A DNA stretch of 40,992 nucleotides from Candidatus Sulfotelmatobacter sp. (GTDB taxonomy: Bacteria > Acidobacteriota > Terriglobia > Terriglobales > Acidobacteriaceae): assembly GCA_030038255.1 (NCBI GenBank), contig JASHPH010000419.1, positions 1-40,992 on the forward strand, in the 5' to 3' direction. This document shows, in pieces, positions 951-36,632 of the stretch (within the stretch, counting starts at the first letter, position 1; every line of letters starts with the position of its first letter). Under the pieces are notes generated by a model. That model saw nothing but the letters and a program-made list of their open reading frames with translations, made no database searches and was not told the origin of the DNA. Position numbers and translations under genes: made by a program.

Positions 951-3900
951 TCAGTCCCTTCGGGAGAATTCCCACAACAGTAGGGCACCCGCGGCCACAG
1001 CCCCCAGGCCGATTCCGGCGCGCTTCATCGAGGCCTGGACCTCGGCCTCGCGCTGGCGGACGAGCCGGGATTCGGGGTAGGGCTCGGAGGCGGGGTGGCG
1101 CGCGGGTTCCAACGCCATCTGCAGGACTTCGGCCAGATGGAGAGCGTGGCGGCCGGTCGACTGGGCGATCTGTTCGCGGCAGCTGAAGCCGTCGGCAATG
1201 ATGAGCCAGTTGGGCGGGGCCTTGCGGACGGCGGGTAGGAGTTCGAGCTCGCCGATGGCGGCGGAGATATCGTACATTTCACCGGCATGGAAGCCGAAGG
1301 AGCCAGCCATGCCGCAGCATCCGGGGGCAGGCTGCTGGAAGTCGATGCCGAGGCGGCGCAGGAGCGACTCTTCGGCGGTCATCTTCATGATGGCTTTGTG
1401 ATGGCAGTGGCCATGGAGGAGCGCCTTGCGCGGGAACTGCGGAAGCGGGGCGTTTTGCGAGTTCTGCTCGAGGAATTCGCTGAGCAGGAAGGTCTGGCGC
1501 GAGAGTTTTCGGGCGCGCTCGTCGCGGGGGAAGAAGTTCGTGAGTTCGTCGCGGAAAACGGCGACGCAGCTGGGTTCGAGTCCGATGATGGGGATGCCGG
1601 CCTGAATTTCGGGTTCGAGTTCGTCGAGGATCTGGAGAAGAAGGGTTTGGGCTCGGTCGAGCATGCCGAAATCGTAGAGTGGGCGTCCGCAGCAGAGGTT
1701 GGCGTGCGGGACCACGACGCGGAAGCCGGCGGTTTCGAGGACTTCGACGGCGGCGCGCGGCGTGGACGGGAGGAAATAGTTGTTGAATGTGTCGGGCCAG
1801 AGGAGAATGGGCGGGCCCGCGGCCTCAGGGGCTGAAGCCCTTTCGCCTCTTGAACCGCTGTACGGCACGGCTGAAGCCGTGCCTTTCCCGTTCGTGCCCC
1901 ATCCATTGGCTCGGTGACGGCGGAACCACTGTTTGAAAGGTTCCGGGGCGAAGGCGGGGATGCTGCGTTGCTTCGGAATGCCGGCCACGATCTTCGAGAG
2001 GTCGCGCAGGAACGGCAGCTGCGTGGTCAGATTCACGAGGCCGGGGACGTTCGATGCGAGGCGCGCCCAGAAATCAATGTTGCCGAAGGCGTAGGCGCTG
2101 AGCGGGCGCAGGCGGCCTTCGTAATAATGCGAGAGAAATTCTGCTTTGTATGTGGCGACGTCCACACCGACTGGACAGTCGCTCTTGCATCCTTTGCAGG
2201 CTAGGCAAAGGTCGAGCGACTGCTTGACTTCTTCGCTACGCCAGCCGTCGCGAATGATGCCGTCGCTCCGTTCGGCCTGCGTCATCTCCCATAGCAGGTG
2301 AGCGCGGCCGCGGGTGGAGTGTTCTTCTTCGTGGGTGGCGCGGAAGCTGGGGCACATCACGCCGCCTTCGTCGTGGCGGCATTTGCCGACGCCGACGCAG
2401 CGTAGCGCGGCGTGCGACAGACTACCGTGATCGGCGGGGAACTGGAAATAAGTTCGCGGCTCCCATGGAGCATAGTCGGCGCCAAGGCGAAGATTCTGGT
2501 CGAGCTTGTTGGGCGGCTTTTCAGGCAAACCAATCAGCTTGCCGGGGTTCATCTTCCAGTCGGGATCCCAGGTGGATTTGAATTTGCGGAAGGCTTCGAT
2601 TAATTCCGGGCCGAATAATTTCGGAAGCAGTTCGCCGCGGGCCTGTCCGTCGCCGTGTTCGCCGGAAATGGAGCCGCCGTAGCTGACGACCAGGTCGGCG
2701 GCCTGCTCGATAAATTTGCGAAATTTGGCGATGCCGTCTTTCGATTCGAGATCGAAGTTGATGCGGGTGTGCACGCAGCCGTGGCCGAAGTGGCCGTAGA
2801 GCGAGCCCTTGTAGCCGAAGTCGGCGAACATTGCGCGCAGGTCGCGGAGATAGCCGCCGAGTTTTTCGGGAGCGACGGCGGCGTCTTCCCATCCCTCCCA
2901 ATTCAGCGGCTCGCCGGGCACGTGCGAGGTGGCGCCCAGACTTGACTCGCGCACTTCCCACACACGTTTCGATTGCTGGCCGGAATAGAGGCGCATGTTG
3001 GGGGGATTCGTGCCGCGGCTGATCGCGTTCATCATGGTGAGGGCTTGCGCCTCGGCTTCGGCCAGAGTCTGACCGCCGAACTCGACCATGAGCCATCCTC
3101 CGCCCTCGGGCAGAAGTGCGAGGCCTTCGGAATTGATTTGCTTCACGCGCGTGTAATAGACGAGGAGGTCGTCGAAGCCCTCGAGGCCGATGGGCTTGTG
3201 CGTCATGATTTCCGGCACGTGGTCGGCGCATTGGTAAACGTCGGGATAGGCCACGACGACGAGCACGCGCGCGGGAGGACTCTCGACCAAACGGCAGGTA
3301 GCTTCCAAAATCGTGGCGCACGTTCCTTCGGATCCGACAAGAGCGCGGGCGACGTGAAAGCCGTTTTCCGGAAGCAGATAGTTGAGGTTGTAGCCGGAGA
3401 CGCGGCGCGGAATATGGGGAAATCGCTGGCGGATCAGGTCGCCGTAGTCGGAGGCGATTTGCTGGAGGGAGGCCGAGATCTGGGCGACGCGGTCCGAGCT
3501 GTAGCCCGATACGTCTGGACCGCCTGGGCGGACCCGTTCGGCTCCCCCTCGGTTCCCTCGGGGTCGCTCAGGGCAGGCTTCTGCGTCCGCCCCTACACGA
3601 GCCGTGGAAGCGCCGGCTGCCTGAATCAAGTTCTCGCCGACGTGCATGCGGACGCCGTCGTAGGTGACGACGTCGAGCGCTTCGATGTTGTCGTCGGTCT
3701 TGCCGGCCATGACCGAGTGCACGCCGCAGGAATTGTTGCCGATCATGCCGCCGATGGTGCAGCGATCGTGGGTTGCGGGATCGGGGGCAAACGTCAGGTG
3801 ATGTTTTTCGGCGGCGTTGCGGAGATGATCGAGCACGACCCCGGGCTGCACTCTTGCGATGCGGCGGACGGGATCGATCTCAAGAATCTTCGCCATGTAC

Positions 3901-4208
3901 TTCGAGAAATCGAGTACGACGGCGACGTTGCAGCACTGACCGGCGAGAGATGTTCCACCGCCGCGGCAGAGCAGTGGCGCGCCGAAGCTACGGCAAAGAG
4001 CAATGGTGGCGAGAACGTCGTCGGAGTCGCGCGGGATCACCACGCCGATCGGGACCTGCCGGTAATTGGAACCGTCGGTGGCGTAGAGGGCGCGGGCGCT
4101 CGAGTCAAAACGGACTTCGCCGCGAATCTCATTGCGCAGCGATTCGGCCAGGCCGGAGAAGTCGCTCACGCGGGCGATGGGAACGAAATCTGCCACTCTG
4201 GAGGACAT
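951..4208 (-). CDS. FAD-linked oxidase / Fe-S dehydrogenase fusion (D-lactate or glycolate dehydrogenase type)
   Basis: A 1085-aa protein that fuses a GlcD-like FAD-binding oxidase to a GlpC-like iron-sulfur part, the architecture of YdiJ and D-2-hydroxyacid dehydrogenases that feed electrons to quinone. The FAD (PCMH) domain shows RGGGTSLAGQC near residue 85. The oxidase C-terminal domain shows YGHFGHGCVH and SGEHGDGQARGELL. Two ferredoxin-type clusters follow (CVGVGKCRHDEGGVMCP; CLACKGCKSDCPVG), then two Cys-rich CCG domains (NLCCGRPLYD; HGHCHHKA with PGCCGMAGSFG). The C-terminus has a hydrophobic stretch GAVAAGALLLWEF that could anchor it. The frame opens at 4298, but a TATACT box at 4257-4252 favours ATG 4208. 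Two segments, about residues 204-228 and 773-796, are encoded by dispersed palindromic repeats (3526-3598 and 1823-1890) and are unlike the rest of the protein. The exact substrate is not shown. Confidence 0.9.
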   Translation of the reverse strand: MSSRVADFVPIARVSDFSGLAESLRNEIRGEVRFDSSARALYATDGSNYRQVPIGVVIPRDSDDVLATIALCRSFGAPLLCRGGGTSLAGQCCNVAVVLDFSKYMAKILEIDPVRRIARVQPGVVLDHLRNAAEKHHLTFAPDPATHDRCTIGGMIGNNSCGVHSVMAGKTDDNIEALDVVTYDGVRMHVGENLIQAAGASTARVGADAEACPERPRGNRGGAERVRPGGPDVSGYSSDRVAQISASLQQIASDYGDLIRQRFPHIPRRVSGYNLNYLLPENGFHVARALVGSEGTCATILEATCRLVESPPARVLVVVAYPDVYQCADHVPEIMTHKPIGLEGFDDLLVYYTRVKQINSEGLALLPEGGGWLMVEFGGQTLAEAEAQALTMMNAISRGTNPPNMRLYSGQQSKRVWEVRESSLGATSHVPGEPLNWEGWEDAAVAPEKLGGYLRDLRAMFADFGYKGSLYGHFGHGCVHTRINFDLESKDGIAKFRKFIEQAADLVVSYGGSISGEHGDGQARGELLPKLFGPELIEAFRKFKSTWDPDWKMNPGKLIGLPEKPPNKLDQNLRLGADYAPWEPRTYFQFPADHGSLSHAALRCVGVGKCRHDEGGVMCPSFRATHEEEHSTRGRAHLLWEMTQAERSDGIIRDGWRSEEVKQSLDLCLACKGCKSDCPVGVDVATYKAEFLSHYYEGRLRPLSAYAFGNIDFWARLASNVPGLVNLTTQLPFLRDLSKIVAGIPKQRSIPAFAPEPFKQWFRRHRANGWGTNGKGTASAVPYSGSRGERASAPEAAGPPILLWPDTFNNYFLPSTPRAAVEVLETAGFRVVVPHANLCCGRPLYDFGMLDRAQTLLLQILDELEPEIQAGIPIIGLEPSCVAVFRDELTNFFPRDERARKLSRQTFLLSEFLEQNSQNAPLPQFPRKALLHGHCHHKAIMKMTAEESLLRRLGIDFQQPAPGCCGMAGSFGFHAGEMYDISAAIGELELLPAVRKAPPNWLIIADGFSCREQIAQSTGRHALHLAEVLQMALEPARHPASEPYPESRLVRQREAEVQASMKRAGIGLGAVAAGALLLWEFSRRD
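1823..1890. repeat. Composite palindromic repeat inside the dehydrogenase gene
   Basis: Two stem-loops: GGGCT-GA-AGCCC (1829-1840) and GGCACGGCT-GA-AGCCGTGCC (1864-1883, perfect 9-bp arms), followed by TTTCCCGTTCG. The same two-hairpin arrangement, starting CCTCAG and ending with CCTTTC or CCTTCC, occurs between genes at 15253-15390, 18715-18780 and 36699-36764. Here it is read in frame and encodes a Gly/Ala/Ser-rich linker between the Fe-S domain and the CCG domains. Confidence 0.8.
3526..3598. repeat. Palindromic repeat with nested element inside the dehydrogenase gene
   Basis: The outer stem GGGCGGAC (3526-3533) pairs with GTCCGCCC (3585-3592) and is followed by CTACAC, the tail seen at 13057-13084. 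In place of the short AATG-type loop there are 51 bases that contain CTCAGGGCAGGCT, the nested element also found at 15088-15120 and 15297-15337. The reading frame stays open and encodes Arg/Gly/Pro-rich residues (GADAEACPERPRGNRGG) within the FAD-domain region. Confidence 0.8.
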
Positions 4209-4251
4209 GGTTTCCGCCAGCAAACTGAAGTCAGGTGAGGTCCGACGCGCG

Positions 4252-4257
4252 AGTATA
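4252..4257 (-). promoter_or_regulatory. Candidate -10 box for the dehydrogenase gene
   Basis: Read on the minus strand the hexamer is TATACT (5/6 to TATAAT), 43 nt upstream of ATG 4208. A -35 match (TCACCA at 4280-4275) is weak. Its position between the two possible starts favours the downstream ATG. Confidence 0.35.
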
Positions 4258-4397
4258 CCGCAGATCGTCGAAGCTGGTGATTGATTACGCGCATACAAAC
4301 GAAGTCGCCAACAGAGGCATCGAACATGGAAGGTGGCTCAGGCGGGGTTAGAAAAACTTGGGTAACGTATCCTAGCTCGCCCCGACCGTTGTCAGAT

Positions 4398-5594: not shown

Positions 5595-5668
5595 CCGTCG
5601 ACTCTGTCCTATGAATCGGACATCGAACGAAGGTTGTCCCCACAACGACTCATTCTCTTCGAGATCGA

Positions 5669-5971
5669 TTAGCTCCAGACCCGCGTGCCGTAGTCGGCCA
5701 TGGAGAGCGCCAGCAGGATGAACAGGAAAAAGATGGTCGAGATCACGACGAGTTTCAGCAGCTTCTCGGAGGCGCCCCTGAGGTGCATAAAGAAGAGCGC
5801 GACGAGAAGGGCCTTGACGGTGGCGATGGTGAGGGCGACGGCGGCGTTGAATGGGCCGAGGTTGACGTGAGCGGCCACGACCGTCAAGATCGTGCCGACG
5901 AGCAAGGCCAGCCACACGGCAATGTAGATGTCCAGTGACGATGAGTGTTCGGATGATGAATGATCAGACAT
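5669..5971 (-). CDS. ctaF: Cytochrome c oxidase subunit IV (caa3 type)
   Basis: A 100-aa protein with a short Ser/His-rich N-terminus and three membrane helices (about residues 14-35, 40-62 and 70-92), including the family-typical helix ATVKALLVALFFMHLRG. Small three-helix subunits of this kind (prokaryotic COX4 family) are the last subunit of caa3-type heme-copper oxidases and stabilise the core complex in the inner membrane. It is the last gene of the act/cox cluster, 34 nt downstream of subunit III in the same direction. The convergent gene upstream of its stop ends at 5594; no strong terminator hairpin is visible in the 74-nt gap. Confidence 0.9.
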   Translation of the reverse strand: MSDHSSSEHSSSLDIYIAVWLALLVGTILTVVAAHVNLGPFNAAVALTIATVKALLVALFFMHLRGASEKLLKLVVISTIFFLFILLALSMADYGTRVWS

Positions 5972-6005
5972 GATGCCTCTTGTTCCTCAACGCAACCTCC
6001 CTCGA

Positions 6006-8367: not shown

Positions 8368-8370
8368 AAC

Positions 8371-9489: not shown

Positions 9490-10440
9490 CTAACTTCGTA
9501 TTACGCGGCTCCAGTCCTTGGGCCGTGGGGCTGCTCTTTCCAGCCGAAACAGAATGAGCAAGAGCGCGGCGAGAAACACGATCGTCGTCGCCGCTCCCAG
9601 CCGCAAAATGTTGTTCACCACCGCGCCGTATTTTCCGGTTGCGGGGTCGTAGTGATAGCAATACAAGAGCACCTGATCGGTCAGGTTGCCGATCTTGCCT
9701 TGCGAGGCTTCGACCAGCCCCATGCGCAAATCTTTCGGCGGAAAATCCACGCCATAGAAGTAGCGCGAAATGCGGCCCTCCGGCGTCAGCACCATGATCG
9801 CCGTGACGTGGGCGTACTCATTGGACTTCGCGTCGTACTGATACTGAAAGCCCACCGCCTTGGTGAGCGCATTGATCGACTCAGCCGGCCCAGTCAGGAA
9901 GTGCCAGCCGGAAGCGGCGCCGGAACGTCCGTAGCGCGCGACGAAATCTTTTTTCTTGGCGGCCGCGTCGGCGGTGGTCTCTTGCGGATTGAAGCTCACG
10001 GTGACGACTTCGAATTCCTTGCCCACGTCGAACTTCACCATCTTCATGGCGCCGGTGAGCCCGGCGAGGGCTTCACCGCAGAGCATGGTGCAGTGGTAAT
10101 AGACCAGGTTGAGGATGATGGGCTTCTTGCCGAAATAGTCGCCGAGTTTGACGCTGCGGCCCGCGTCGTCGACGAAGGCGAGATCGGCGGGAACCTGGGC
10201 GTCGAGATGCTGCTCGATGCCGACGTTCTCCAGCTTCGGCGGGCGGACGTTCGATGGCGGCGACATGATGCCCTGACTCATGCCCTGGCCGAAAGCTTGA
10301 GACGATGCCAGCGTCAGGAGGATGAGCAGGGTCATGAAAATCTTCACACGGCATTTGTAGGGGGGGACGCATTCGTCCGCCCCCGACCGCAGCGAGTCGA
10401 ATGGCTCCATGCAAAGCGAATTGTGATTTGTGCGACTCAC
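9490..10440 (-). CDS. SCO1/SenC-type copper chaperone
   Basis: A thioredoxin-fold protein that delivers copper to the CuA site of subunit II. It carries the copper-binding Cys pair (YYHCTMLCGEAL, Cys117 and Cys121 counted from the GTG) and His211 (EYAHVTAIMVL). It has an exported N-terminus (MTLLILLTLASSQAFGQG) and a C-terminal membrane helix (TTIVFLAALLLILFRL), as in other SCO proteins coded beside ActF. The frame starts at a GTG at 10440 that overlaps the upstream stop (GTGA), but codons 13-30 are encoded by a palindromic repeat (10354-10401). The functional start may therefore be ATG 10335, or GTG 10347, just before the signal peptide. Confidence 0.9.
   Translation of the reverse strand: MSRTNHNSLCMEPFDSLRSGADECVPPYKCRVKIFMTLLILLTLASSQAFGQGMSQGIMSPPSNVRPPKLENVGIEQHLDAQVPADLAFVDDAGRSVKLGDYFGKKPIILNLVYYHCTMLCGEALAGLTGAMKMVKFDVGKEFEVVTVSFNPQETTADAAAKKKDFVARYGRSGAASGWHFLTGPAESINALTKAVGFQYQYDAKSNEYAHVTAIMVLTPEGRISRYFYGVDFPPKDLRMGLVEASQGKIGNLTDQVLLYCYHYDPATGKYGAVVNNILRLGAATTIVFLAALLLILFRLERAAPRPKDWSRVIRS
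10354..10401. repeat. Palindromic repeat at the 5' end of the SCO gene
   Basis: Reading from 10356: TGTAG, then a G-rich arm ending GGACG, CATT, CGTCCGCCCC, then CCGCAGCGAGTCGAA. This is the reverse orientation of the unit at 13039-13084 (Ser/Arg-encoding GTCGAGC part plus a GGACG...CGTCC hairpin plus CCTACA). It lies between the translationally coupled GTG and the signal peptide of SCO and keeps the frame open. Confidence 0.7.
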
Positions 10441-10928
10441 TTCTTTTTTGTTTCCTTCGTATTCGTGCCTACAGTGTTCGAAGCGACTTCCGTGCTGCTC
10501 TGGTTACGGGTTGGCAGACCGCGCTCGGTGATCAAATCCATGGCGCGCTCGATCGGGATGCGTACGATGCCGGCCTTCTGGTCCACATAATCGTAGGTGC
10601 TCAGCGTCTCTTCCTCGTTGAGCCGGATTTTGTTGAGCTGTGTGCGCTCGTCAATTTCCAGCTGCGGGCTGGGAAAGTTCTGCTTCAGGTAATCCCGGTA
10701 ATCCACCGAAAGATGGCGGGTGTCCACCGGAGCGTTCGTAACCAGCGGGCTGACTGGAGCCTGCTCGGCTTCGGTGCGCTTTTCGAGATAGGAATAAAGA
10801 CCGGTCATGAGGAAGTGCGCGATCAGGCCAAACACGGCCAGCCCCAGCAGGAAATAAAGCACGCCGCTGGCGCCAATATCGCGGGGCTCGAAGCCCCCGT
10901 GGCCGGTCGAATTGTGTTCGTTCATCAT
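10437..10928 (-). CDS. Conserved one-helix protein of the ActF-SCO interval, function unknown
   Basis: A 163-aa protein with one predicted membrane helix (SGVLYFLLGLAVFGLIAHFL, about residues 20-40) and a soluble acidic/basic domain. The domain holds LSVDYRDYLKQNFPSPQLEI, a run LNKIRLNEEETLSTYDYVD, and near the end GIVRIPIERAMDLITERGLP; the tail is Thr/Asn/Lys-rich. It lies between actF and SCO in the same direction and overlaps the SCO GTG by 4 bp. Position and topology suggest an accessory subunit or assembly factor of alternative complex III or the caa3 oxidase. I know no named family for it. No Cys or heme motif is present, so it does not carry electrons itself. Confidence 0.8.
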   Translation of the reverse strand: MMNEHNSTGHGGFEPRDIGASGVLYFLLGLAVFGLIAHFLMTGLYSYLEKRTEAEQAPVSPLVTNAPVDTRHLSVDYRDYLKQNFPSPQLEIDERTQLNKIRLNEEETLSTYDYVDQKAGIVRIPIERAMDLITERGLPTRNQSSTEVASNTVGTNTKETKKK

Positions 10929-10940
10929 TTTTTGGTATGA

Positions 10941-11060
10941 GTGCCGTCCCTACGGGACTCGCTCAACTTTGTTTGCGTTTCCCGGCACTACCGTGCCGGG
11001 CTTTCATATCTCGCCGCTTCGCGGCTGGAGCCGGGCGATCAAGCCGTGCCCTTCCCAATC
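10941..11060. repeat. Palindromic repeat cluster between actF and the 163-aa gene
   Basis: The 139-nt gap is almost all repeat. It holds GTCCC-TAC-GGGAC (10946-10958), CCCGGCACTACCGTGCCGGG (10981-11000, perfect 8-bp arms), then CGCCGCTTCGCGGCTGG (11012-11028) and AAGCCGTGCCCTTCCC. The same order of elements appears at 15150-15195 and 18627-18710. Confidence 0.8.
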
Positions 11061-11067
11061 TCTTCCG

Positions 11068-12300
11068 CTAGGTGCCTCCGTGATGCGGGGCCGGCTCCAG
11101 AACTTCCGAGGCTTGCGCGTCGTACACGGGGAGCAACGGCAACGATGCCAGGTTGCGGAAGAACAACGCCATCCACAGGCAGCCGATCGCCAGCGGCACC
11201 ACAATGTCGGCCACGGTCACGCGGAACGTCTGCGAGAAATTCGGCTCGATGATCCAGAATAGGTCGACGAAGCGCATGCAGAGCAGCCACACCGCCAGCC
11301 AGAACAACTTGCGAATATTGCGCTTGAAGGGCCGCGACAAAAGAATCGCGAAGGGAATGGCGAAGTGGAAGATCACAATGAACAAGCCCACATATCCCCA
11401 TCCGTCATTCAGGCGCCGCATGTAATACGTGATTTCTGTCGGCAGATTTCCCGCCCAGATGATGAGCCACTGCGAGAAATTGAAATAGGCCCAGACCATG
11501 ATGAAGGTCAGCATCCACTTGCCATGGTCGTGGACGAACTCGGGCTTGAGCAGGTCCGACATGGGTTTGTAGTCGACCAGAATGCGCTCGACGAACACGG
11601 CGAAGCACATCGCCGCCAGAACTTCGCCGATCAGAATGACCAAGCCGAAGATGGTCGAGATCCAACTGGGATCAAGCGACATGACCCAGTCGATTGCGGC
11701 AAAAGAAATCGTAAATCCGCAGAGAATGAGTCCCGGGCCGCTGACGGCTTTGAAGCGCTGCGTGTTGTCGCGTGCCGAGGGGGAGTCTCCTTCTTTTGAC
11801 CACTTTGATAGCAGAAACGAAAGCAGATTCCAGATGGCGAAGTAGAAGACGGCGCGAAGGAAGAAGCCGCGCGGCGTCAGGTAGCTCTCGAGAATGAAAC
11901 GGTTCTTGTCAAGATGCTCTCGGATGTGCGCGTCGGTGATCGCGCCCAGCGGCATCGCCCACGGATACATTCTTTTCTGCCACACGGCAATGAGCAGCGG
12001 AAGGAAGAGCACTGACAGGAACGGCAGCGTGCGCATGGCCGCGCCCTGTATGCGCCGGATCACGACGCCCCAGCCCCCGCCCGTCAAATGCCTGATCATA
12101 ATGATCGCCATGGAGCCAAGGGCGACGCCGAGCCAATCCATGAAGCCGAGCAGGTAGGCCTGATAGAAGTCGTCGGGGCGTGTGAAGGCGAGCGCTGCCG
12201 CAGCGATCGCGAGGACGACGCCAGCAATCAGCAGCCGCTGTGCGATGGTCTTCACCACCGGCGGGGCTGTGAGGTCGAGTTTGGCGGTCGGCGCGATCAT
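11068..12300 (-). CDS. actF: Alternative complex III subunit ActF (quinone-interacting NrfD-like)
   Basis: A 410-aa integral membrane protein with about ten helices. It is one of the two membrane subunits of alternative complex III that resemble NrfD/PsrC; the larger one, ActC, is also coded here. Visible landmarks are the first helix LLIAGVVLAIAAAALAF, the loop DKNRFILESYLTPRGFFLR, and the middle helices SFAAIDWVMSLDPSW and FIMVWAYFNFSQWLIIWAGNLP, typical of ActF. The gene overlaps the end of actE by 4 bp (ATGA), consistent with coupled translation. The stop is followed by a repeat-filled gap of 139 nt. Confidence 0.93.
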   Translation of the reverse strand: MIAPTAKLDLTAPPVVKTIAQRLLIAGVVLAIAAAALAFTRPDDFYQAYLLGFMDWLGVALGSMAIIMIRHLTGGGWGVVIRRIQGAAMRTLPFLSVLFLPLLIAVWQKRMYPWAMPLGAITDAHIREHLDKNRFILESYLTPRGFFLRAVFYFAIWNLLSFLLSKWSKEGDSPSARDNTQRFKAVSGPGLILCGFTISFAAIDWVMSLDPSWISTIFGLVILIGEVLAAMCFAVFVERILVDYKPMSDLLKPEFVHDHGKWMLTFIMVWAYFNFSQWLIIWAGNLPTEITYYMRRLNDGWGYVGLFIVIFHFAIPFAILLSRPFKRNIRKLFWLAVWLLCMRFVDLFWIIEPNFSQTFRVTVADIVVPLAIGCLWMALFFRNLASLPLLPVYDAQASEVLEPAPHHGGT

Positions 12301-13157
12301 TTCGTTTCTTCTTTCTCAGGCGCGGATTTCTTTTCCGGCGCCAGGATGGGCAGTGTCGCTCCCGTGCCGGGTTCGGCGAATTTCGGCGGCTGCGACGGAA
12401 TCTGCCGTCCCACGGGCACGTCGGCCATGGTCGCGTTCTGGCTCAGTTGCAGGGCGCGAACGTAGGCAACGATGTCCCAGCGGTCCTGCGGCGGAATTTG
12501 CGACGCATAGTCGGGCATGATGCCGAAGCCGTTGGTGATGACGTCGAAGAAATATCCGAGCGGCGCTTTCTGCAGCCGCGGAATGTGGTACGACGGTGGC
12601 TTTCGCGAGAAACCGCGGGACGGGACGAATCCGTTGCCGTCGCCCAGACGTGAATGGCAGGGGGCGCAGAAAATGTTGAAGCGCTCGCGGCCGCGCTCGA
12701 GAACGGCCTTGGTGACGGGGAAGGGCATGAAGTCGCCGGGATTGGCGCCGATTTTGCCGGTGTAGAAATAGGTGTCGGCGCGGAGGTCGCCGCGGGCGAC
12801 GGCGCCTTCGACCAGAGGACGAGCTGAACGCCGGTCTGTGTAGAAGTCGCTGCGCGCGAGCGGATTCTGGCGCGGCTGCACGTGCATGTCGATGCGGCAG
12901 GCGGAGGTGAGGGCGATGGCTGCGAGCAGGATTGTGCAGGTGAAAATCGTGTGCAGTCCGCCGCCGGAATTTCCCACGTCTCGCAAAACCGGCGAGACGT
13001 GGGGCACCCCAATTTTATGGCTCTCCACCAGAGAACCTGTCGAGCTGCGCTCGACCGGGCGGACGAATGCGTCCGCCCCTACACGGCCGTCGAGCTGCGC
13101 TCGACCGGACAGCCGGGGGCGGCTGTCCCTACATGGATTTTGGCGGAGGCGAGACAT
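12297..13157 (-). CDS. actE: Alternative complex III subunit ActE (mono-heme cytochrome c lipoprotein), N-terminus repeat-expanded
   Basis: A mono-heme cytochrome c with CAPCH (residues 164-168 from ATG 13157) and a candidate axial Met in GIMPDYASQIPP. The export signal is a lipobox segment (HTIFTCTILLAAIALTSAC, Cys87), so the protein is anchored by lipid outside the membrane, as ActE is in Rhodothermus. It passes electrons from the ActA/ActB part to the oxidase. ATG 13157 directly follows the actD stop and has GGAGG 11 nt upstream, and MSRLRQ would be a fitting basic n-region. Yet about 60 codons between it and the hydrophobic segment are encoded by palindromic repeats. Alternative starts are TTG 12986 or GTG 12977. 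Confidence 0.88.
   Translation of the reverse strand: MSRLRQNPCRDSRPRLSGRAQLDGRVGADAFVRPVERSSTGSLVESHKIGVPHVSPVLRDVGNSGGGLHTIFTCTILLAAIALTSACRIDMHVQPRQNPLARSDFYTDRRSARPLVEGAVARGDLRADTYFYTGKIGANPGDFMPFPVTKAVLERGRERFNIFCAPCHSRLGDGNGFVPSRGFSRKPPSYHIPRLQKAPLGYFFDVITNGFGIMPDYASQIPPQDRWDIVAYVRALQLSQNATMADVPVGRQIPSQPPKFAEPGTGATLPILAPEKKSAPEKEETK
12973..13003. repeat. Perfect 12-bp inverted repeat before the ActE signal peptide
   Basis: CCCACGTCTCGC (12973-12984), a 7-base loop AAAACCG, and GCGAGACGTGGG (12992-13003) form a perfect 12-bp stem, followed by GCACCCCAATTTT. On the minus strand it lies immediately before the coding region of the ActE lipobox segment, and one candidate start (GTG 12977) is inside the stem. 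Confidence 0.8.
13039..13136. repeat. Two tandem composite palindromic units upstream of/inside actE
   Basis: GTCGAGCTGCGCTCGAC occurs at 13039-13055 and again at 13089-13105, exactly 50 bp apart. Each copy is followed by a second hairpin with a different stem: GGGCGGACG-AATG-CGTCCGCCC with tail CTACAC (from 13057), and GGACAGCC-GGGGGC-GGCTGTCC with tail CTACATGG (13107-13136). The second unit is nearly identical to 36371-36418 inside pgeF, in reverse orientation on the plus strand. Confidence 0.85.
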
Positions 13158-13697
13158 CTAGCTGGGCACCTCCGAGAGGGAGCGTGGATTCAGGCCCTCC
13201 ATGAACTTGCGCGTTTCCGCGGGATCGTATTTTTTGTCGGAAGAAAAGACGATCAGGAAAAAACGGTCTTTCGACGCGGACGAAAATCGCGGCACGTTGA
13301 ACACCGGGTGGTACGGCATGGGCAAGCCGTTGAGGGCGAGCATGCCGAAGACGGCGGAGATGCCGGCGAAGAGAATCGTCATCTCGAAGGTGATCACGAT
13401 GAACGCGGGCCACGAGTGGTACGGTTTGCCGCCGATGTTCAGCGGGTAGTCGACGGCCGACATCCAGTACTGCATCAGGTAGCCGCTGATGCCGCCGATC
13501 AGGCCGCCGATGAGTACGACCAGCGGAACTTCATCATGATGGAATCCGATTTCCTCCGCCAGCCCTTCGATGGGGAAGGGGCTGTAGGCGTCGATCTTCT
13601 TGTAGCCGGCTTGATGCGTCTTCTTGGCCGCGTCGAGGAGGGCCTGGGCGGAATCGAATTCCGCCATGATGCCGTAGATGGGATCGCGATGGGCCAT
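13158..13697 (-). CDS. actD: Alternative complex III subunit ActD (DUF3341)
   Basis: A 179-aa protein of the DUF3341 family. It has a soluble N-terminal part (YGIMAEFDSAQALLDAA; DAYSPFPIEGL, a family signature), two membrane helices (LVVLIGGLIGGISGYLM and FIVITFEMTILFAGISAVFGML) and a C-terminal soluble tail containing PRFSSASKDRFFLIVFSSD. In alternative complex III, ActD is a membrane subunit without cofactors that packs against ActC/ActF. Its ATG overlaps the actC stop by one base (TAATG). Confidence 0.95.
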   Translation of the reverse strand: MAHRDPIYGIMAEFDSAQALLDAAKKTHQAGYKKIDAYSPFPIEGLAEEIGFHHDEVPLVVLIGGLIGGISGYLMQYWMSAVDYPLNIGGKPYHSWPAFIVITFEMTILFAGISAVFGMLALNGLPMPYHPVFNVPRFSSASKDRFFLIVFSSDKKYDPAETRKFMEGLNPRSLSEVPS

Positions 13698-15067
13698 TAT
13701 TCCCTCACCTCCGCTTCAGGCAGAAGGGTGCGCATCTCGAAGATCGAAATGGCGGGCAGCACGCGCAGGAACAGGAACATGAGCATCAGGAACATGCCGA
13801 TGGTGCCGAAGTACGTCATCCAGTCCCAGCGCGTGGGGTAGTACATGCCCCAGGAAGAGGTGAGGAAGTCGCGGTGCAGGCTCAGGACGACGATGACGAA
13901 GCGCTCAAGCCACATGCCAACCAGAATGACGCCGGAGATGAAGAACAGCGCGACCGGGCTGGTGCGCAGCTTGCGAATCCACAGCACCTGCGGGATGAAG
14001 ATGTTGCAAATGAGAAGAGCCCAGTAGGGACCGGCGTAGGGCCCGTGCAGGCGGTTCCAGAGTGTGAAGGCGTCGTAGCGGTCGCCACCGTACCATCCCA
14101 TGAAGGCTTCGATCATGTAGCCGTAGGCGACGATGAGGCCGGTAGCGAGCATGACTTTGGCCGAGTTCTGCAGATGGCGTTCAGTGATGAAATCTTCGAG
14201 GCCGTAAATTTTGCGGATGGGGATGGCCAGCATCAGCACCATGGCGAAGCCGGAGTAAATCGCGCCGGCGACGAAGTACGGAGGGAAAATCGTGGTGTGC
14301 CATCCGGGGACGATGCCGACGGCGAAGTCGAAACTCACGACCGTGTGCACGGAGAGCACGAGCGGCGTGGCCAGTCCTGCGAGCAGCAGGTACATCGTCT
14401 CGTAACGGTGCCAGTGGCGGGCGGATCCGCGCCAGCCGAACGAGAGCATGCCGTAGACAATCCTGAGGCACTTATTTTCGGTGCGGTCGCGCAGCGTGGC
14501 GAGATCGGGGATGAGCCCAGTGAACCAGAAGAGCGCGGAGATCGTGGCGTAGGTGGAGACGGCGAAGACGTCCCACATGAGCGGGCTGCGGAATTGCGGC
14601 CACACGCCCATGGTATTGGGAATCGGGAACAGCCAGTAAGCAAGCCACGGACGGCCGACGTGGATAGCGGGAAAAATTCCGGCGCTGGCGACGGCGAAGA
14701 GCGTCATGGCTTCGGCAAAACGGTTGATGGAATTGCGCCAGGATTGACGGAGTAGTAAGAGAATGGCGGAGATGAGCGTGCCGGCGTGGCCGATACCGAT
14801 CCACCAGACGAAGTTGACGATGGCGAAGCCCCATCCGATGGGGATGGTCACGCCCCAGATGCCGATGCCTTTGAGAAACAGGTAGCCGATGGCGTAGAGC
14901 AGCATCATGGTGGCCATGAAGCAGAGACCGAAGCCGATGAACCATCCGTTCGACACCGGACGGGTCAGCACGATGGCCGAGATTTTTTCCGTGACCGTGC
15001 CGAAGGTGTGGCCGGGTTCGATGACCGGGGCGCGTTCGACCGTCGGCGATTTGTATTGATCGTTCAT
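13697..15067 (-). CDS. actC: Alternative complex III subunit ActC (NrfD-like quinol-binding)
   Basis: A 456-aa NrfD/PsrC-family membrane protein with about ten helices. It shows the family landmarks WGFAIVNFVWWIGIGHAGT, HVGRPWLAYWLFPIPN, LWDVFAVSTY-like PLMWDVFAVSTYATIS, HTVVSFDFAVGIVPGWHTT and LEDFITERHLQN. ActC is the main quinol-oxidising membrane subunit and lies against the Fe-S subunit ActB. ATG 15067 is preceded by a 403-nt repeat-filled gap after actB, so this half of the cluster may have its own translation or transcript start. The downstream actD overlaps the stop. Confidence 0.95.
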   Translation of the reverse strand: MNDQYKSPTVERAPVIEPGHTFGTVTEKISAIVLTRPVSNGWFIGFGLCFMATMMLLYAIGYLFLKGIGIWGVTIPIGWGFAIVNFVWWIGIGHAGTLISAILLLLRQSWRNSINRFAEAMTLFAVASAGIFPAIHVGRPWLAYWLFPIPNTMGVWPQFRSPLMWDVFAVSTYATISALFWFTGLIPDLATLRDRTENKCLRIVYGMLSFGWRGSARHWHRYETMYLLLAGLATPLVLSVHTVVSFDFAVGIVPGWHTTIFPPYFVAGAIYSGFAMVLMLAIPIRKIYGLEDFITERHLQNSAKVMLATGLIVAYGYMIEAFMGWYGGDRYDAFTLWNRLHGPYAGPYWALLICNIFIPQVLWIRKLRTSPVALFFISGVILVGMWLERFVIVVLSLHRDFLTSSWGMYYPTRWDWMTYFGTIGMFLMLMFLFLRVLPAISIFEMRTLLPEAEVRE

Positions 15068-15070
15068 CGT

Positions 15071-15470
15071 TGAATCGTGCCGTCCCCTTCGACGCGCTGC
15101 GCTTGCTCAGGGCAGGCTCTAGGGGACTGGTTCGGTGTTTCGCGTCTTTCCCGGCACTTCCGTGCCGGGCTTTCACATCCCGCCGCTACGCGGCTGGTGG
15201 ATCTCGGGGAATAAAGAGCCCCTCTGTCTCCAAAAGTCGCCTTAGCGCGACCCCTCAGCGGCTAAAGCCGCGTCGTTCATTCCGCTGTAACGGCACCCTT
15301 CGACTCGCTCCACTCGCTCAGGGCAGGCTCAAAAGCAAAAGTCGTGCCCTTCCCGTTCGTTCCAGCGGCGCGGCTGAAGCCGCGCCCTTTCAAAACAAGA
15401 TTGCGGCTTCAAAACAAAACTGCAGCCGCGCTTCGCGCGAGGACGGATGAATGCGTCCGTCCCTACATGA
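15071..15470. repeat. 403-bp actB-actC gap made of palindromic repeats
   Basis: No gene is credible here. Elements in order: GTCCCC (15082-15087) and GGGGAC (15122-15127) enclose a nested CTCAGGGCAGGCT element; CCCGGCACTTCCGTGCCGGG (15150-15169); CGCCGCTACGCGGCTGG (15181-15197); CCTCAGCGGCTAAAGCCGCG (15253-15272); CGGCAC (15291-15296) and GTGCC (15344-15348) enclose another nested element; GGCGCGGCT-GA-AGCCGCGCC (15367-15386); and GGACGGATGAATGCGTCC with tail CCCTACATGAC (from 15441). Confidence 0.85.
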
Positions 15471-18605
<3,135 letters not shown>

Positions 18606-18621
18606 GCGTTACGGATTTCTT

Positions 18622-18782
18622 GTGGCGTCCCTACGGGACTCGTTCTGCTTTTTCTATGCTTCCCCGGCACTTCCGTGCCGGGCTCTTACATTCCGCCGCT
18701 TCGCGGCTGCTATGCCTCAGCGGCTAAAGCCGCTCCTTATAATTCCCGCTTTCGGCGCGGCTGAAGCCGTGCCCTTTCAAAA
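18622..18782. repeat. Palindromic repeat cluster between actA and actB
   Basis: GTCCC-TAC-GGGAC (18627-18639), CCCGGCACTTCCGTGCCGGG (18663-18682), CCGCCGCTTCGCGGCTGC (18693-18710), AGCGGC-TAAA-GCCGCT (18719-18734) and GGCGCGGCT-GA-AGCCGTGCC (18754-18773) fill the 180-nt gap. Order and spacing match 10941-11060 and parts of 15071-15470. Confidence 0.85.
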
Positions 18783-18785
18783 CTC

Positions 18786-19484
18786 TCATCTATGACACGT
18801 ACTGCACGTCGTAATGTCTTTCACGCTGCGCACGTTGTACTTCTTCAACAAGGCTGTACCCAACTCGAGTTGATCTGTGTAGCTCTTGCCGTCGACTACG
18901 ACCGGGTTCGCGCTCGTCGGTTGCTGGTAGCGCATGTTGAACACCTGATCGCGCGGGCGGAGATTTTTCTCCGGGGCGCGATGGCAGCCCAGGCACCATT
19001 CCATCTGGAGCGATTCCTGCTGATACATCAGAGGCATCTGATCGACCGGGCCGTGGCAGGTGTTGCAGCCGACTCCTTTATTGATATGAATGCTGTGATT
19101 GAAATAGACGAAGTCGGGAAGCTGGTTGACGCGCGTCCACTGCAGCGATTCGCCAGATTTGTAGCTGGCGCGCACGGGCTCGAGCAGCTGGGCGTTGGTC
19201 CAGATCTGCGAGTGACAGTTCATGCAGGTGCGGGTCGGCGGAATGCCGGCGAAGCTGGAGGTTTCGACCGAGGTGTGGCAGTAGCGGCAGTCGATGCCGA
19301 GTCCGGTGACGTGGTGCTGATGGCTGAAAGGCACCGGCTGCGGCTTGCGCACGCCGGCATAGGTCACGTACGGCGAGCGCTGGATTTCCATTGCGACCCA
19401 GGCGAGGGCTGCAATCACGAATACTGCGCCAAAAATTGTGGCGCGCGACAGAGTATTAGTGCTGCGATGAAAGATCTGCGACAT
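18786..19484 (-). CDS. actA: Alternative complex III subunit ActA (pentaheme cytochrome c)
   Basis: A 232-aa protein with one N-terminal membrane helix (TIFGAVFVIAALAWVAM) and five CxxCH motifs: CRYCH (66-70), CMNCH (87-91), CNTCH (140-144), CLGCH (164-168) and CSTCH (227-231, at the very end). The heme spacing and the FSHQHHVTGLGIDC segment are typical of ActA, a periplasm-facing relay between ActB clusters and ActE. It is the first gene of the cluster, and a candidate promoter lies at 19603-19632. The Shine-Dalgarno sequence (AAGAGA) before ATG 19484 is weak. Confidence 0.96.
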   Translation of the reverse strand: MSQIFHRSTNTLSRATIFGAVFVIAALAWVAMEIQRSPYVTYAGVRKPQPVPFSHQHHVTGLGIDCRYCHTSVETSSFAGIPPTRTCMNCHSQIWTNAQLLEPVRASYKSGESLQWTRVNQLPDFVYFNHSIHINKGVGCNTCHGPVDQMPLMYQQESLQMEWCLGCHRAPEKNLRPRDQVFNMRYQQPTSANPVVVDGKSYTDQLELGTALLKKYNVRSVKDITTCSTCHR

Positions 19485-30203: not shown

Positions 30204-30205
30204 GC

Positions 30206-31359: not shown

Positions 31360-31365
31360 GGCGAC

Positions 31366-31371: not shown

Positions 31372-31404
31372 GCGGCCGGATTCGGCCTTTCGCAGCACGT
31401 TCCT

Positions 31405-31410
31405 TATAAT
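31405..31410 (+). promoter_or_regulatory. Candidate -10 box, leaderless tyrS transcript
   Basis: An exact TATAAT ends 10 nt before ATG 31421. It overlaps the alternative ATG at 31409, so that ATG would be outside the transcript. Confidence 0.5.
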
Positions 31411-31420
31411 GTCCTTTCTC

Positions 31421-32755: not shown

Positions 32756-32804
32756 TCATTAATCTCTATCTCCCGGATGAATTCTGCTACCCTCATCCCC
32801 GCAC

Positions 32805-33749: not shown

Positions 33750-33754
33750 ACCCC

Positions 33755-33800
33755 GTCGAGCTTCGCTCAAGCCGGACGGGTCGAAGACCCGTCCCCACAC
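33755..33800. repeat. Composite palindromic unit between the lipid kinase and sppA
   Basis: GTCGAGCTTCGCTCAAG (33755-33771) then GGACGGGTC-GAA-GACCCGTCC (33774-33794, perfect 9-bp arms) then CCACAC. It has the same two-part plan as 13039-13084 and 13089-13136, but a different stem sequence. Confidence 0.8.
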
Positions 33801-33851
33801 AGTCCTTGCATACTCGCATGTAGGCTTTACATTCTCCTTCCGATCTGGTGC

Positions 33852-33857
33852 TAAACT
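33852..33857 (+). promoter_or_regulatory. Candidate -10 box, leaderless sppA transcript
   Basis: TAAACT ends 6 nt before ATG 33864, with no room for a Shine-Dalgarno sequence. Confidence 0.35.
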
Positions 33858-33863
33858 TTTCTC

Positions 33864-34778
33864 ATGTCTGAAGGACGCTCGCGCACCTGGCTGTGGGTTC
33901 TGATCGGAGGAGGAGCTTTCTTCCTCTTCGTGCTGGCGGTGTTTACGATGGTGTACCTTACGCTGCACGCGGGCGGGGGCGAGACCACGAGCATAACCAG
34001 CTTCGGCGACCGCATCGGCGTGGTCGATCTCAGCGGCGTGATCCTTTCGCCACAGCCGGTCGTCGACCAGCTGAAGAAATTCGCCGACGATTCCTCGATC
34101 AAGGCGATCATCCTCCACGTGAATTCACCCGGCGGAGGCGTGGCAGCGTCGGAAGAAATTTACCGGGAAGTCAAGCGCATCCACACGGAGAAGAAAAAGA
34201 AAATCGTAGTTTCGATCGAGACGGTCGGGGCCAGCGGCGCGTATTACGTGGCCTCGGCGTCCGACAAGATTTTTGCCGACCAGGGCAGCATTGTGGGTTC
34301 GATCGGCGTGATTGCGCAGTGGTTTAACTACGGCGACCTGCTGAAGTGGGCCAAGCTGAAAGACGTGGTGATCAAGACCGGCGAGTTCAAGGACACGGGC
34401 AACCCCGCGCGAGACCTCACTCCGGCCGAGCAGGCCTACATGCAGGAGTTGATCGACAACATGTTCGGGCAGTTCGTCAAGGCGGTGGCGGACGGGCGCA
34501 GCCTGAAGTACGACGACGTGAAATCCATGGCCAACGGCAAAGTCTGGACCGGCGAGCAGGCCAAGAACCTGAAGCTGATCGACACGATCGGCGACTTCCA
34601 AAGTGCAGTGGACGACACGGCCAAGTCCGTTGGCATCAAGGGTGAGCCCACGCTGGTGCGTCCTGAGAAGGAACGCAAGACGCTGCTCGATCTGCTGCTC
34701 GGGGATGTTTCCCAATATCTTCCCACCCGCGAGAAGTTGATGGAGCAGCAGGTGGGATTTTATTATCTGTGGAAATAA
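33864..34778 (+). CDS. sppA: Signal peptide peptidase SppA (short, S49 family)
   Basis: A 304-aa membrane-anchored serine protease that degrades cleaved signal peptides at the outer face of the inner membrane. It has one N-terminal helix (WLWVLIGGGAFFLFVLAVFTMVYL). The catalytic Ser124 is in VGASGAYYVAS and Lys176 in GEFKDTGNP, the Ser/Lys dyad of the short Gram-positive-like form. VNSPGGGVAASEEIY forms the oxyanion region. It is followed by the HU gene after about 200 nt. Confidence 0.93.
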   Translation: MSEGRSRTWLWVLIGGGAFFLFVLAVFTMVYLTLHAGGGETTSITSFGDRIGVVDLSGVILSPQPVVDQLKKFADDSSIKAIILHVNSPGGGVAASEEIYREVKRIHTEKKKKIVVSIETVGASGAYYVASASDKIFADQGSIVGSIGVIAQWFNYGDLLKWAKLKDVVIKTGEFKDTGNPARDLTPAEQAYMQELIDNMFGQFVKAVADGRSLKYDDVKSMANGKVWTGEQAKNLKLIDTIGDFQSAVDDTAKSVGIKGEPTLVRPEKERKTLLDLLLGDVSQYLPTREKLMEQQVGFYYLWK

Positions 34779-34979
34779 GGGATTGACCATCCGGCTCGGG
34801 CGAAATCTCTCTGCAGGGCGCATACACCCCGTAACTTGCATCCAACCCCTGAAATTTGAGAAGGTTATGAGAGTTAAAGCCGGATTTCGCCAGGCCGCGA
34901 AACCCCGCAGGCGCTCAATTTTCGCGGAGCAATCTCGTTGCGAGTGTCGATTCCGGACAAGAAAGGGACTAAGGGACTT

Positions 34980-35309
34980 ATGACCAAGGCCGATCTGATT
35001 GACGAAGTGTCGCGTTTGGCAGAACTTACGCGGAAAGACAGCGAAGTGATCGTGGAAACGATCTTCGACAGCGTGGTGCGCTCGCTGCGTGCCGGCGACA
35101 AGATTGAGATCCGCGGCTTTGGCAGTTTTCGTACGCGCCAGCGCAAGCCCCGCGTGGGGCGCAATCCGAAGACCGGTGAGCGCGTCGACGTCCCCGCCAA
35201 GAAGATTCCTTTCTTCAAGCCCAGCAAGGAGTTGAAGGATCTGGTGAACGAGACGACTCCGGCCGCGGCTCCCGCTTCTGCGCCACCAGCGAGTTCGGCA
35301 CCCGCGTAA
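34980..35309 (+). CDS. HU/IHF-family DNA-binding protein
   Basis: A 109-aa histone-like protein that binds and bends DNA as a dimer. It begins MTKADLIDEVSRLAEL and carries the HU arm GRNPKTGERVDVPAKKIPFF and the core GDKIEIRGFGSFRTRQRKPR, closest to the IHF/HimA side of the family. The C-terminus has an extra Ala/Pro/Ser tail of about 17 residues (PAAAPASAPPASSAPA) that plain HU lacks. ATG 34980 is preceded by AAGGGA; the frame is open from 34938 but lacks HU homology there. It is convergent with the decayed gene at 35324. Confidence 0.95.
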   Translation: MTKADLIDEVSRLAELTRKDSEVIVETIFDSVVRSLRAGDKIEIRGFGSFRTRQRKPRVGRNPKTGERVDVPAKKIPFFKPSKELKDLVNETTPAAAPASAPPASSAPA

Positions 35310-35323
35310 GCGCTGGGTAGAGC

Positions 35324-35638
35324 TTACTTCTCTGCCTGACCCGAATCGCGTTTCGGCCGCATCCAGCGATTTGGTCCGAGGCCCAGCACGACTCCCCAGC
35401 TTGCGATCAATAGGAACGTAAGGATTCTGGGCCATTTCAAGTCGGCGATGAGAACGATGAGGTAAGCCTCGCCGATGATGAAAGTGATCCCCTAGAGCAG
35501 AATCAAGACCAGCATTCGCGGCGTCACGCTGCTTTTCGGCAAACATCAGAGCGCGAACCAGCTCACGAAGACGACGGCAAAGCAGCAAGCGGCAAGTAAG
35601 GTGCCGCGCAACGCACTCCATGCAGCCGCGGCGGTCAT
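35324..35638 (-). pseudogene. Decayed small membrane-protein gene with two in-frame stops
   Basis: From ATG 35638 (GGAG upstream) one frame reads MTAAAAWSALRGTLLAACC and a hydrophobic segment to TGA at 35548-35546, then SSVTPRMLVLILL to TAG at 35494-35492, then FIIGEAYLIVLIADLKW, a further hydrophobic segment LTFLLIASWGVVLGLG, and a basic end to TAA at 35326-35324. All pieces are in a single frame, three to four membrane helices long in total, about 104 codons. This continuity across two stops indicates a gene recently lost by point mutation. The original function is unknown. An overlapping 498-codon open frame in another phase is rejected as a shadow. Confidence 0.6.
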
Positions 35639-35711
35639 GGCTCCATCATAGCTTCACTCGGCAATTCCCCTGGCGAGTCTGCTCGGCTGCGCAGCGTCTT
35701 GCCGTTCTCAG

Positions 35712-36632
35712 TCAGCCCCGGATTCCAGCCACGCCCATCATCCGCCCGGTCTTGCCCTTCTCGGCGCGATAGGAAAAAAGCAGTTCCGGATGGCAGTTCG
35801 TGCAGAGCGGAGACGCTTCTATATTTTTCGCCGGGACTCCGACGGCCAGAAGCTGCTGGCGGTTGGCCTCGACCAGATCAAGGAAGATCTTCGGCGGCAG
35901 CTCGCCGTGACCCGGAGCGCGCGCCGTAAGAAACAGCAGAGGATATTTTTCCCGCACCGGATCCGATTCCTTCACCTCGCGAAACAGTTTGGCCGCGTAG
36001 GCAAATTGCGATTCGAACTTGGTACGCACCTCTTCGCCCACTGTGTAGCAGCAACCGTGAATCCCTGGCCCCATCGCGGCTTTCAGATCGCGCGGATGGC
36101 TGCCAAAGTGACGGAACATTTCGCCCACACCTTTTTCCACGATGCGCTTCACCGTGCCGCGCCAACCCGCGTGAAACACGCCGACAGCGCGGTGTTTCGT
36201 GTCGGCCAGAATGATCGGAAGACAATCCGCAGTCTGGACTACTAGCAGCAGGCCCGGAGCGGAGGTCAGCAGGCCATCTCCGACCAGAGGTGCTTCGGAA
36301 CCCGATTCCACGCGATGAATGATATCGGAATGAATCTGGCGGAGCGTGATCAGCTGCCAGGCAACCGTTTCATGTAGGGACAGCCGCCCTCGGCTGTGCG
36401 GTCGAGCGAAGCTCGACCGCAATGCCTGCAGAAATGCCGCCCGGTTACGTTCGACCGCGGCGCCGGAATCATCCTTCGTGAATCCGAGATTGAGATCGCC
36501 TTTTCCATATACACGGGAGAATCCCCCAGCGCGCGTGGAGAATCCATGCACGAGCCAGGACAGCGCGACCAACTTGTCAGCGCGAAGAACATTCAACTTG
36601 TCGATTGATTTCCGGCGAGCCCGAGTGACCAC
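35712..36632 (-). CDS. pgeF: Peptidoglycan editing factor PgeF / YfiH (purine nucleoside phosphorylase fold)
   Basis: A 306-aa member of the former multicopper-oxidase-laccase family, now known as PgeF (YfiH). It prevents wrong amino acids in cell-wall precursors and has nucleoside phosphorylase activity in homologues. Zinc-site motifs are visible: VQTADCLPI (Cys), FHAGWRGTV (His) and LRQIHSDI (His). GPGIHGCCYTVGEEV is a family signature. About residues 71-88 (RSSFARPHSRGRLSLHE) are encoded by a palindromic repeat at 36371-36420 and lengthen a loop before the first zinc ligand. It starts at GTG 36632; TAACAT (36644-36639, minus strand) is 6 nt upstream, so the transcript is probably leaderless. 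Confidence 0.93.
   Translation of the reverse strand: MVTRARRKSIDKLNVLRADKLVALSWLVHGFSTRAGGFSRVYGKGDLNLGFTKDDSGAAVERNRAAFLQALRSSFARPHSRGRLSLHETVAWQLITLRQIHSDIIHRVESGSEAPLVGDGLLTSAPGLLLVVQTADCLPIILADTKHRAVGVFHAGWRGTVKRIVEKGVGEMFRHFGSHPRDLKAAMGPGIHGCCYTVGEEVRTKFESQFAYAAKLFREVKESDPVREKYPLLFLTARAPGHGELPPKIFLDLVEANRQQLLAVGVPAKNIEASPLCTNCHPELLFSYRAEKGKTGRMMGVAGIRG
36371..36420. repeat. Composite palindromic unit inside pgeF
   Basis: From left: CATGTAGGGACAGCCG, CCCT, CGGCTGTGC, then GGTCGAGCGAAGCTCGACC. It matches the reverse complement of 13089-13135 with only a few base differences and, read in the pgeF direction, has the same order of parts as that copy. It stays in frame within pgeF. Confidence 0.9.

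What the first reader, a model, noticed from the sequence alone, without database searches (positions are those of the whole stretch)
3526..36420. Palindromic repeats inserted in frame inside protein-coding genes
Repeats that otherwise sit between genes also occur inside open frames without breaking them: 3526-3598 and 1823-1890 in the FAD/Fe-S dehydrogenase, and 36371-36420 in pgeF. The pgeF copy matches 13089-13135 with a few differences. They add Arg/Gly/Pro/Ser-rich linkers (about 17-25 residues each). Apart from Rickettsia palindromic elements I know of few families that do this; these seem a different, GC-rich set.
Basis: partly seen in the sequence, partly recalled or inferred. Interest (0 to 1): 0.8.

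Follow-up and report, generated by a model that had tools for sequence, protein, structure and literature searches.

The report
Mobile hairpin repeats inside bacterial genes
Short, probably mobile DNA hairpins sit inside working genes of a soil bacterium and its relatives without breaking them, adding linker stretches to the proteins; this kind of event is already known, but here several hairpin families share the same spots and even nest inside one another.

Summary
The PgeF copy (36371-36420) is a GTAG-type REP, 92% identical to 13086-13135. 3526-3598 is composite: a GTAG REP with a second element in its loop; sister genome G007 has the REP without it. 1823-1890 is two palindromes of another kind.

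The clade is Candidatus Sulfotelmatobacter-like. In 30 orthologues the two dehydrogenase linkers carry many different in-frame palindromes; most distant relatives keep a short linker A. Further in-frame REPs lie in MutS, MnmE, RsmI, LolC/E, UvrD (three) and others. Of 103 REP copies classified automatically, 16 were in frame within coding flanks; the 5 flagged as frame-broken proved to lie outside gene interiors.

Transposase loci: 16 of 33 have flanking inverted repeats against 2 of 3000 controls; 5 of 33 share sequence with in-gene linkers.

Best reading: mobile palindromes of RAYT/TIRYT type, surviving only in frame in tolerant linkers. Intragenic GTAG REPs were published in 2013 (PMC3733652), so this is a variant of a known kind. 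Extra here: several families per linker, loop nesting, a MutS hairpin kept by paired changes. Expression and mobility untested.

The parts
951..4298 (-). Fused FAD oxidase / Fe-S / CCG dehydrogenase with two decorated linkers (A after FAD_binding_4, B just before CCG)
   Evidence: PF01565 83-219, PF02913 341-588, PF13183 631-712, PF02754 841-915
3526..3597 (-). Insert A: outer GTAG REP, in frame in the dehydrogenase; GTAG head at the high-coordinate end
   Evidence: sequence; 48-nt-type REP without the loop element in G007
3534..3582 (-). Second element nested in the loop of the insert A REP (CTGCCCTGAGC... type)
   Evidence: net +45 nt against G007; similar copy at L076:13955; 16 nt shared with the flanking repeats of transposase locus L117
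1829..1840 (-). Insert B: palindrome GGGCTGAAGCCC, in frame; the type is in linker B of 12 of 30 orthologues
1864..1883 (-). Insert B: palindrome GGCACGGCTGAAGCCGTGCC (9-bp stem), in frame; relatives between genes at 15366, 18753, 36736
35712..36632 (-). PgeF-type (Cu-oxidase_4) gene
   Evidence: PF02578 E 2.5e-64
36371..36420 (+). GTAG REP in frame in pgeF, head on the + strand, i.e. opposite to the gene
13037..13083 (-). GTAG REP, probably upstream of the cytochrome c gene
13087..13134 (-). GTAG REP, probably upstream of the cytochrome c gene; closest window copy to the pgeF insert
15423..15468 (-). GTAG REP beside a gene
10356..10399 (+). GTAG REP beside a gene
33753..33799 (-). GTGG-headed REP beside a gene; stem similar to the palindromes flanking the RAYT gene in L072
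38650..38700 (+). Composite REP outside the two genes, 80% match to 3550-3600 of insert A

Best explanation
The inserts belong to several families of small mobile palindromes: GTAG/GTGG-headed REPs, and palindromes like those at the ends of Y1 tyrosine transposase genes of the RAYT/TIRYT kind. Single-strand transposition by such enzymes scatters them (inferred). A copy that falls in a gene survives only if it adds a multiple of three bases without a stop and lies in a tolerant linker; other copies are purged (the in-frame pattern is shown, the purging inferred). The GC-rich, nearly stop-free repeats are then translated as basic Pro/Ser-rich linkers (inferred, not measured). A tolerant linker goes on collecting palindromes, beside earlier ones or inside their hairpin loops, so the same two linkers differ between most species of the genus.
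For: Copies: 44 matches in own genome; REP pattern in 45 of 45 genus genomes, reversed-pattern control 0 in all. Linkers: 119 examined (29 A, 30 B, 30 PgeF, 30 MutS) with 0 stops; hairpins well above codon shuffles in A, B and MutS. Linker A is 52 residues between wide anchors in 58 of 79 measurable of 81 rows, including Chloroflexi, Pontibacter and Methylobacter, and longer in 21. Independent events: the pgeF REP of own has the opposite orientation to those of G007, G001, G012; REPs are read in two frames in linkers A and B. Clean loop gains of 24, 24 and 45 nt. In frame within coding flanks: 5 of 37 own and 11 of 66 G001 copies, against 788 and 743 of 1500 random placements, i.e. genes are depleted. 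Transposases: PF01797 in 43 of 45 genus genomes; 3 of 4 own copies are NCBIfam REP_Tyr_transpos over cut-off; 16 of 33 loci have inverted repeats on both sides against 2 of 3000 control positions, and 5 of 33 against 0 of 3000 share a 13-mer with in-gene linkers. L071's flank (up to 33 nt, with few differences in most) recurs in linker B of five species.
Against: No transposase was found whose flanks carry the main REP family itself (GGGACAGCC stem); the L072 palindromes have another stem, and L071-type palindromes are not in the own linkers. 17 of 33 transposase loci show no such repeats (some are cut by contig ends). No target-site duplication was looked for or shown. Several linker palindromes have a single frame across species, which fits inheritance as well as repeated insertion. 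The stretches for the REP counts were chosen around REP hits. Copies classed noncoding or one-sided (29 of 37 and 51 of 66) were not all inspected, so a broken gene could hide there. Expression is untested; nearly all material is draft MAGs.
Confidence: 0.8

Rival explanations
1. The in-gene palindromes are kept because the hairpin itself works, e.g. as mRNA structure slowing the ribosome between domains, or as a DNA structure or binding site.
For: In MutS the insert has one frame in 11 of 30 orthologues picked for a recognisable motif; its two hairpins stay 90.9% paired over 176 cells, 9 cells changed on both sides, 0 of 500 shuffles reach the covariation score, slid controls 28-46% paired.
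Against: Rows were picked by motif and are related; the tool warns that such sets can exceed every shuffle, and the measure 'pairs with a change on both sides' is reached by 30 of 500 shuffles. Other MutS orthologues (e.g. G018, G015, G063, 42-residue linker) lack it. Gene conversion from other REPs would look the same: arm variants CCGAGC, CGGAGC and GCGAGC coexist in G001. Template-switch repair of palindromes is a further recalled possibility.
Confidence: 0.15
2. No insertion: these linkers are ancestral low-complexity stretches that drifted into GC-rich palindromes by codon bias.
For: The linkers vary in length and are Arg/Ser-rich even where no palindrome is seen, notably in PgeF; the PgeF hairpin count is not above codon shuffles.
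Against: The in-gene DNA is near-identical to dispersed copies (92% over 50 nt); hairpin counts in A, B and MutS far exceed codon shuffles; loop insertions of 24 and 45 nt between relatives.
Confidence: 0.03
3. The palindromes are not translated: the ribosome hops over them or they are removed from the RNA (bypass elements, recalled).
For: Hairpins in coding sequence; nothing here measures the protein.
Against: 0 stops in 119 linkers and open frames on both sides; bypassed or removed elements need not keep the frame.
Confidence: 0.03
4. Assembly artefact of repeats in draft MAGs.
For: Nearly all genomes are drafts; one dehydrogenase locus (L198) has a run of N over linker A.
Against: The pattern recurs in separately titled MAGs from different projects, in frame, with shared species-specific variants.
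Confidence: 0.01

Closest known systems
Intragenic GTAG and CGTC REPs (Di Nocera et al. 2013, PMC3733652; abstract, sections 15-16, passages seen)
   Same: GTAG-headed palindromes inside genes without breaking them, DNA repair genes among the targets (UvrABC, UvrD, RecBCD there; MutS, UvrD here); REPs that supply a TAG stop
   Different: Other phylum; here also transposase-end palindromes, several families per linker across a genus, and nesting in loops. These were not in the parts I saw; its Additional file 3 was not read
Rickettsia palindromic elements (passages of the review PMC10969869)
   Same: Palindromes inserted in frame in many unrelated genes
   Different: The review gives about 150 bp for RPEs; the main family here is about 48 nt and GC-rich. 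No sequence comparison with RPEs was run
RAYT / TIRYT tyrosine transposases and their REPs or TIRs (PMC3733652 section 16; passages of PMC8266576)
   Same: NCBIfam REP_Tyr_transpos genes flanked by inverted palindromes; Acidobacteria TIRYTs are named in PMC3733652
   Different: Partner enzyme of the main REP family not identified
IS elements that insert into REPs (passages of PMC1525189)
   Same: A REP serves as target of another element
   Different: Here the guest is itself a short palindrome of about 24-49 nt

Membership tests
GTAG-type REP | GTAG-like head next to a short hairpin | tested here: met
   29 seeds, 37 nhmmer copies in 412 kb; many copies have GTGG instead of GTAG
GTAG-type REP | Many dispersed copies, mostly outside genes | tested here: met
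   45 of 45 genus genomes; 5 of 37 and 11 of 66 classified in frame in coding flanks
GTAG-type REP | Partner RAYT flanked by the same REP | tested here: inconclusive
   RAYT genes present and one (L072) flanked by GTGG-headed palindromes of another stem
TIRYT transposase ends | Palindromic inverted repeats on both sides of a Y1 transposase gene, with copies elsewhere | tested here: met
   16 of 33 loci against 2 of 3000 controls; copies in in-gene linkers for 5 of 33
Rickettsia palindromic elements | About 150 bp size | tested here: not met
   Main family about 48 nt; size of RPEs from PMC10969869 passages
Rickettsia palindromic elements | RPE sequence | not tested
   No RPE sequence was compared
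Mobile element | Empty sites and transposition | tested here: inconclusive
   Empty loop sites between species; transposition not testable here, target duplications not looked for

The most novel reading that the evidence does not exclude
Tolerant linkers in this genus act as landing pads where palindromes of several transposase systems pile up and nest in frame, and some older ones (MutS) have been taken over as working hairpins or linkers, so that mobile repeats steadily rewrite conserved housekeeping proteins.
Probability: 0.15. Interest if true: 0.75.

Novelty: new variant of a known kind. Interest (0 to 1): 0.5.

Why it matters
It shows at genus scale, with outgroups and some empty sites, how small hairpin elements add sequence to conserved proteins without breaking them, and ties several in-gene palindromes to the ends of transposase genes. 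The orthologues form a natural series (linker B from 26 to 127 residues between fixed anchors) for testing whether such linkers are neutral.

Tried and rejected
Structure prediction of PgeF and the dehydrogenase from 10-sequence alignments gave mean pLDDT 39.7 and 39.8: unusable. That inserts lie in surface loops is inferred from linker variability and Pfam limits only. Solved-structure searches: the best PgeF alignment (6dzd_A) starts at residue 95, after the insert; in the best MutS alignment (7ou2_A) the insert region is largely gapped.

A first census by regular expressions found 29 GTAG copies and did not class pgeF's as in frame; nhmmer replaced it. Three own and two G001 copies looked frame-breaking; on inspection they lie between genes or, once, in a C-terminal tail. 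One G001 in-frame case (L250:3088) lies in an ORF without a Pfam match and may not be a gene. Two dehydrogenase loci (L190, L192) have a real frame change near residue 185, upstream of linker A; a third (L198), which I first took for one, has a run of N there.

Rejected: bypass or RNA removal; chance palindromes for linkers A, B and MutS.

Literature searches. No held paper has both 'Sulfotelmatobacter' and 'palindromic'; the library is open-licence PMC papers only. Papers seen: PMC3733652 (abstract, sections 15 and 16, passages), PMC10969869, PMC1525189, PMC8266576 (passages); the rest only as listings.

Full report
What is there. The window is a whole contig (C166) of a 5.1 Mb draft genome of 423 contigs. 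Titles of the nearest named relatives are Candidatus Sulfotelmatobacter, Acidobacteriaceae, Terriglobia and Acidobacteria MAGs; the G001 contig C1 has the same length, 65,704, as one titled Acidobacteriaceae bacterium SbA1. In pgeF (35712-36632, minus) 36371-36420 is a GTAG-headed REP, 92% identical to the reverse complement of 13086-13135. In the dehydrogenase (951-4298, minus; domains) 3526-3597 is a GTAG REP whose loop holds a second element, and 1823-1890 holds two palindromes of another type, one with relatives at 15366, 18753 and 36736 (family D3).

The repeat. The main family is about 48 nt: head (A)TGT[A/G]G, a hairpin of the GGACAGCC...GGCTGTCC or GGGCGGAC...GTCCGCCC type, and in most seeds a second small hairpin (GTCGAGC...GCTCGAC and variants). 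The GTGG form of the consensus is open in six frames, the GTAG form in five. A pattern for it occurs in 45 of 45 genus genomes, with no reversed-pattern match.

Relatives. PgeF: 58 of 61 genomes searched match; the 30 fetched loci, own included, have a naturally variable linker at the insert; four (own, G007, G001, G012) hold GTAG-REP DNA there by inspection, own in the opposite orientation to the other three. Dehydrogenase: 59 of 61 genomes match, 30 loci fetched, own included. Between narrow anchors linker A (29 measurable) is 25 residues in eight and 30-63 in 21, with a perfect hairpin of 8 or more pairs in 17 of 29; linker B runs from 26 to 127 residues with such a hairpin in 18 of 30; codon shuffles give means of 0.66 and 0.76. 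In a second, named set (the best 80 of 349 relatives, plus own) linker A between wider anchors is 52 residues in 58 of 79 measurable rows and longer in 21. Against a strict contrast: two rows with a 52-residue linker A also hold one hairpin (L183, L226), and neighbouring acidobacterial clades have short palindromes in linker B.

Nesting. Own and G007 (92% protein identity) differ by a net 45 nt inside the REP loop of linker A, plus 3 nt outside it; G026 MutS has 24 nt more than G028 in a REP loop; G023 linker B has 24 nt more than G035 at a REP loop, with some neighbouring mismatches. All are multiples of three. A similar copy of the own nested element lies beside a gene at L076:13955. Of seven matches to a pattern for this element in the own sample, one is nested in a REP by my test, so nesting is not its usual state there.

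Other genes. In 412 kb of own sequence (window plus 20 stretches chosen around REP hits) 37 REPs were found, 5 in frame within coding flanks: LolC/E-like permease (its NCBIfam match is under the curated cut-off), RsmI, MnmE, MutS and PgeF. The dehydrogenase composite is not in that list. In 396 kb of G001, also chosen around hits, there were 66 REPs, 11 in frame, 10 of them in Pfam-supported genes: UvrD (three), PurL-type, PgeF, MFS, PD40 protein, MutS, aminotransferase, xanthine-dehydrogenase type (MutS and PgeF by identity with the earlier loci). Two G001 copies lie too near a stretch end to classify. Random 48-nt placements score as in-frame coding in 788 and 743 of 1500, so REPs in genes are depleted three- to fourfold. 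The five copies flagged as frame-changing lie between genes or in a C-terminal tail. Copies classed noncoding or one-sided were not all inspected.

Transposases. Y1_Tnp (PF01797) genes occur in 43 of 45 genus genomes and four times in the own genome; three of these are REP_Tyr_transpos over NCBI's cut-off, one is IS200-type. Of 33 loci (4 own, 29 of other genomes), 16 have inverted repeats of 14 nt or more within 300 nt on both sides, against 2 of 3000 random positions; some loci are cut by contig ends. Five of 33 share a 13-mer of these repeats with the in-gene linkers, against 0 of 3000. L071's flank recurs in linker B of G007, G025, G018, G024 and G010: all 33 nt in G024, with a few differences in the rest. 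The L117 flank shares 16 nt with the nested element of insert A, and the L104 and L118 flanks match a palindrome in G016 linker B. No locus was found with the main REP family itself on both sides.

Age and pairing. In MutS 11 of 30 orthologues, picked for a recognisable motif, have the insert in one frame; another (G011) has a REP-like head in a different frame, and several have the short linker. The two hairpins form standard pairs in 90.9% of 176 cells, with 9 cells changed on both sides, above all 500 shuffles for the score, though 30 of 500 reach the number of pairs with double changes; slid controls give 28-46% paired. This suggests, but does not prove, maintenance; gene conversion from other REPs is a plausible neutral cause.

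Mechanism. Shown: repeat families, open frames through them, gains between relatives, transposase-end matches. Inferred: transposition by RAYT/TIRYT enzymes, purging of frame-breaking copies, translation and neutrality of the linkers.

Novelty. REPs inside genes are published, with repair genes among the targets and Acidobacteria TIRYTs named (PMC3733652, parts seen). What I did not meet in the parts read is REPs and transposase-end palindromes in one linker, their genus-wide turnover, and in-frame nesting in loops; I did not read its supplementary list.

Noticed in passing
window 12297-13157 (-): The cytochrome c ORF stays open through two GTAG REPs and a third palindrome (12973-13003) ahead of a lipobox-like motif; the true start is probably downstream, but an N-terminal extension is not excluded.
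   Followed up: partly
L190 and L192: Two dehydrogenase orthologues have a frame change near query residue 185, upstream of linker A, in separate MAGs.
   Followed up: partly
L234:11476-14193 (-): A UvrD-type helicase gene of G001 carries three separate in-frame GTAG REPs.
   Followed up: partly
L233:18351-18388: A REP begins where an ABC-transporter-like ORF ends and seems to supply its stop codon.
   Followed up: partly
L178, L182, L187, linker B: A neighbouring clade carries another recurring linker peptide (AGVSPAVxRASRPL) with a hairpin at the same site.
   Followed up: no
window 10900-18800: Several palindrome families sit between consecutive genes of a cluster that looks like alternative complex III (recalled, not tested).
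   Followed up: no
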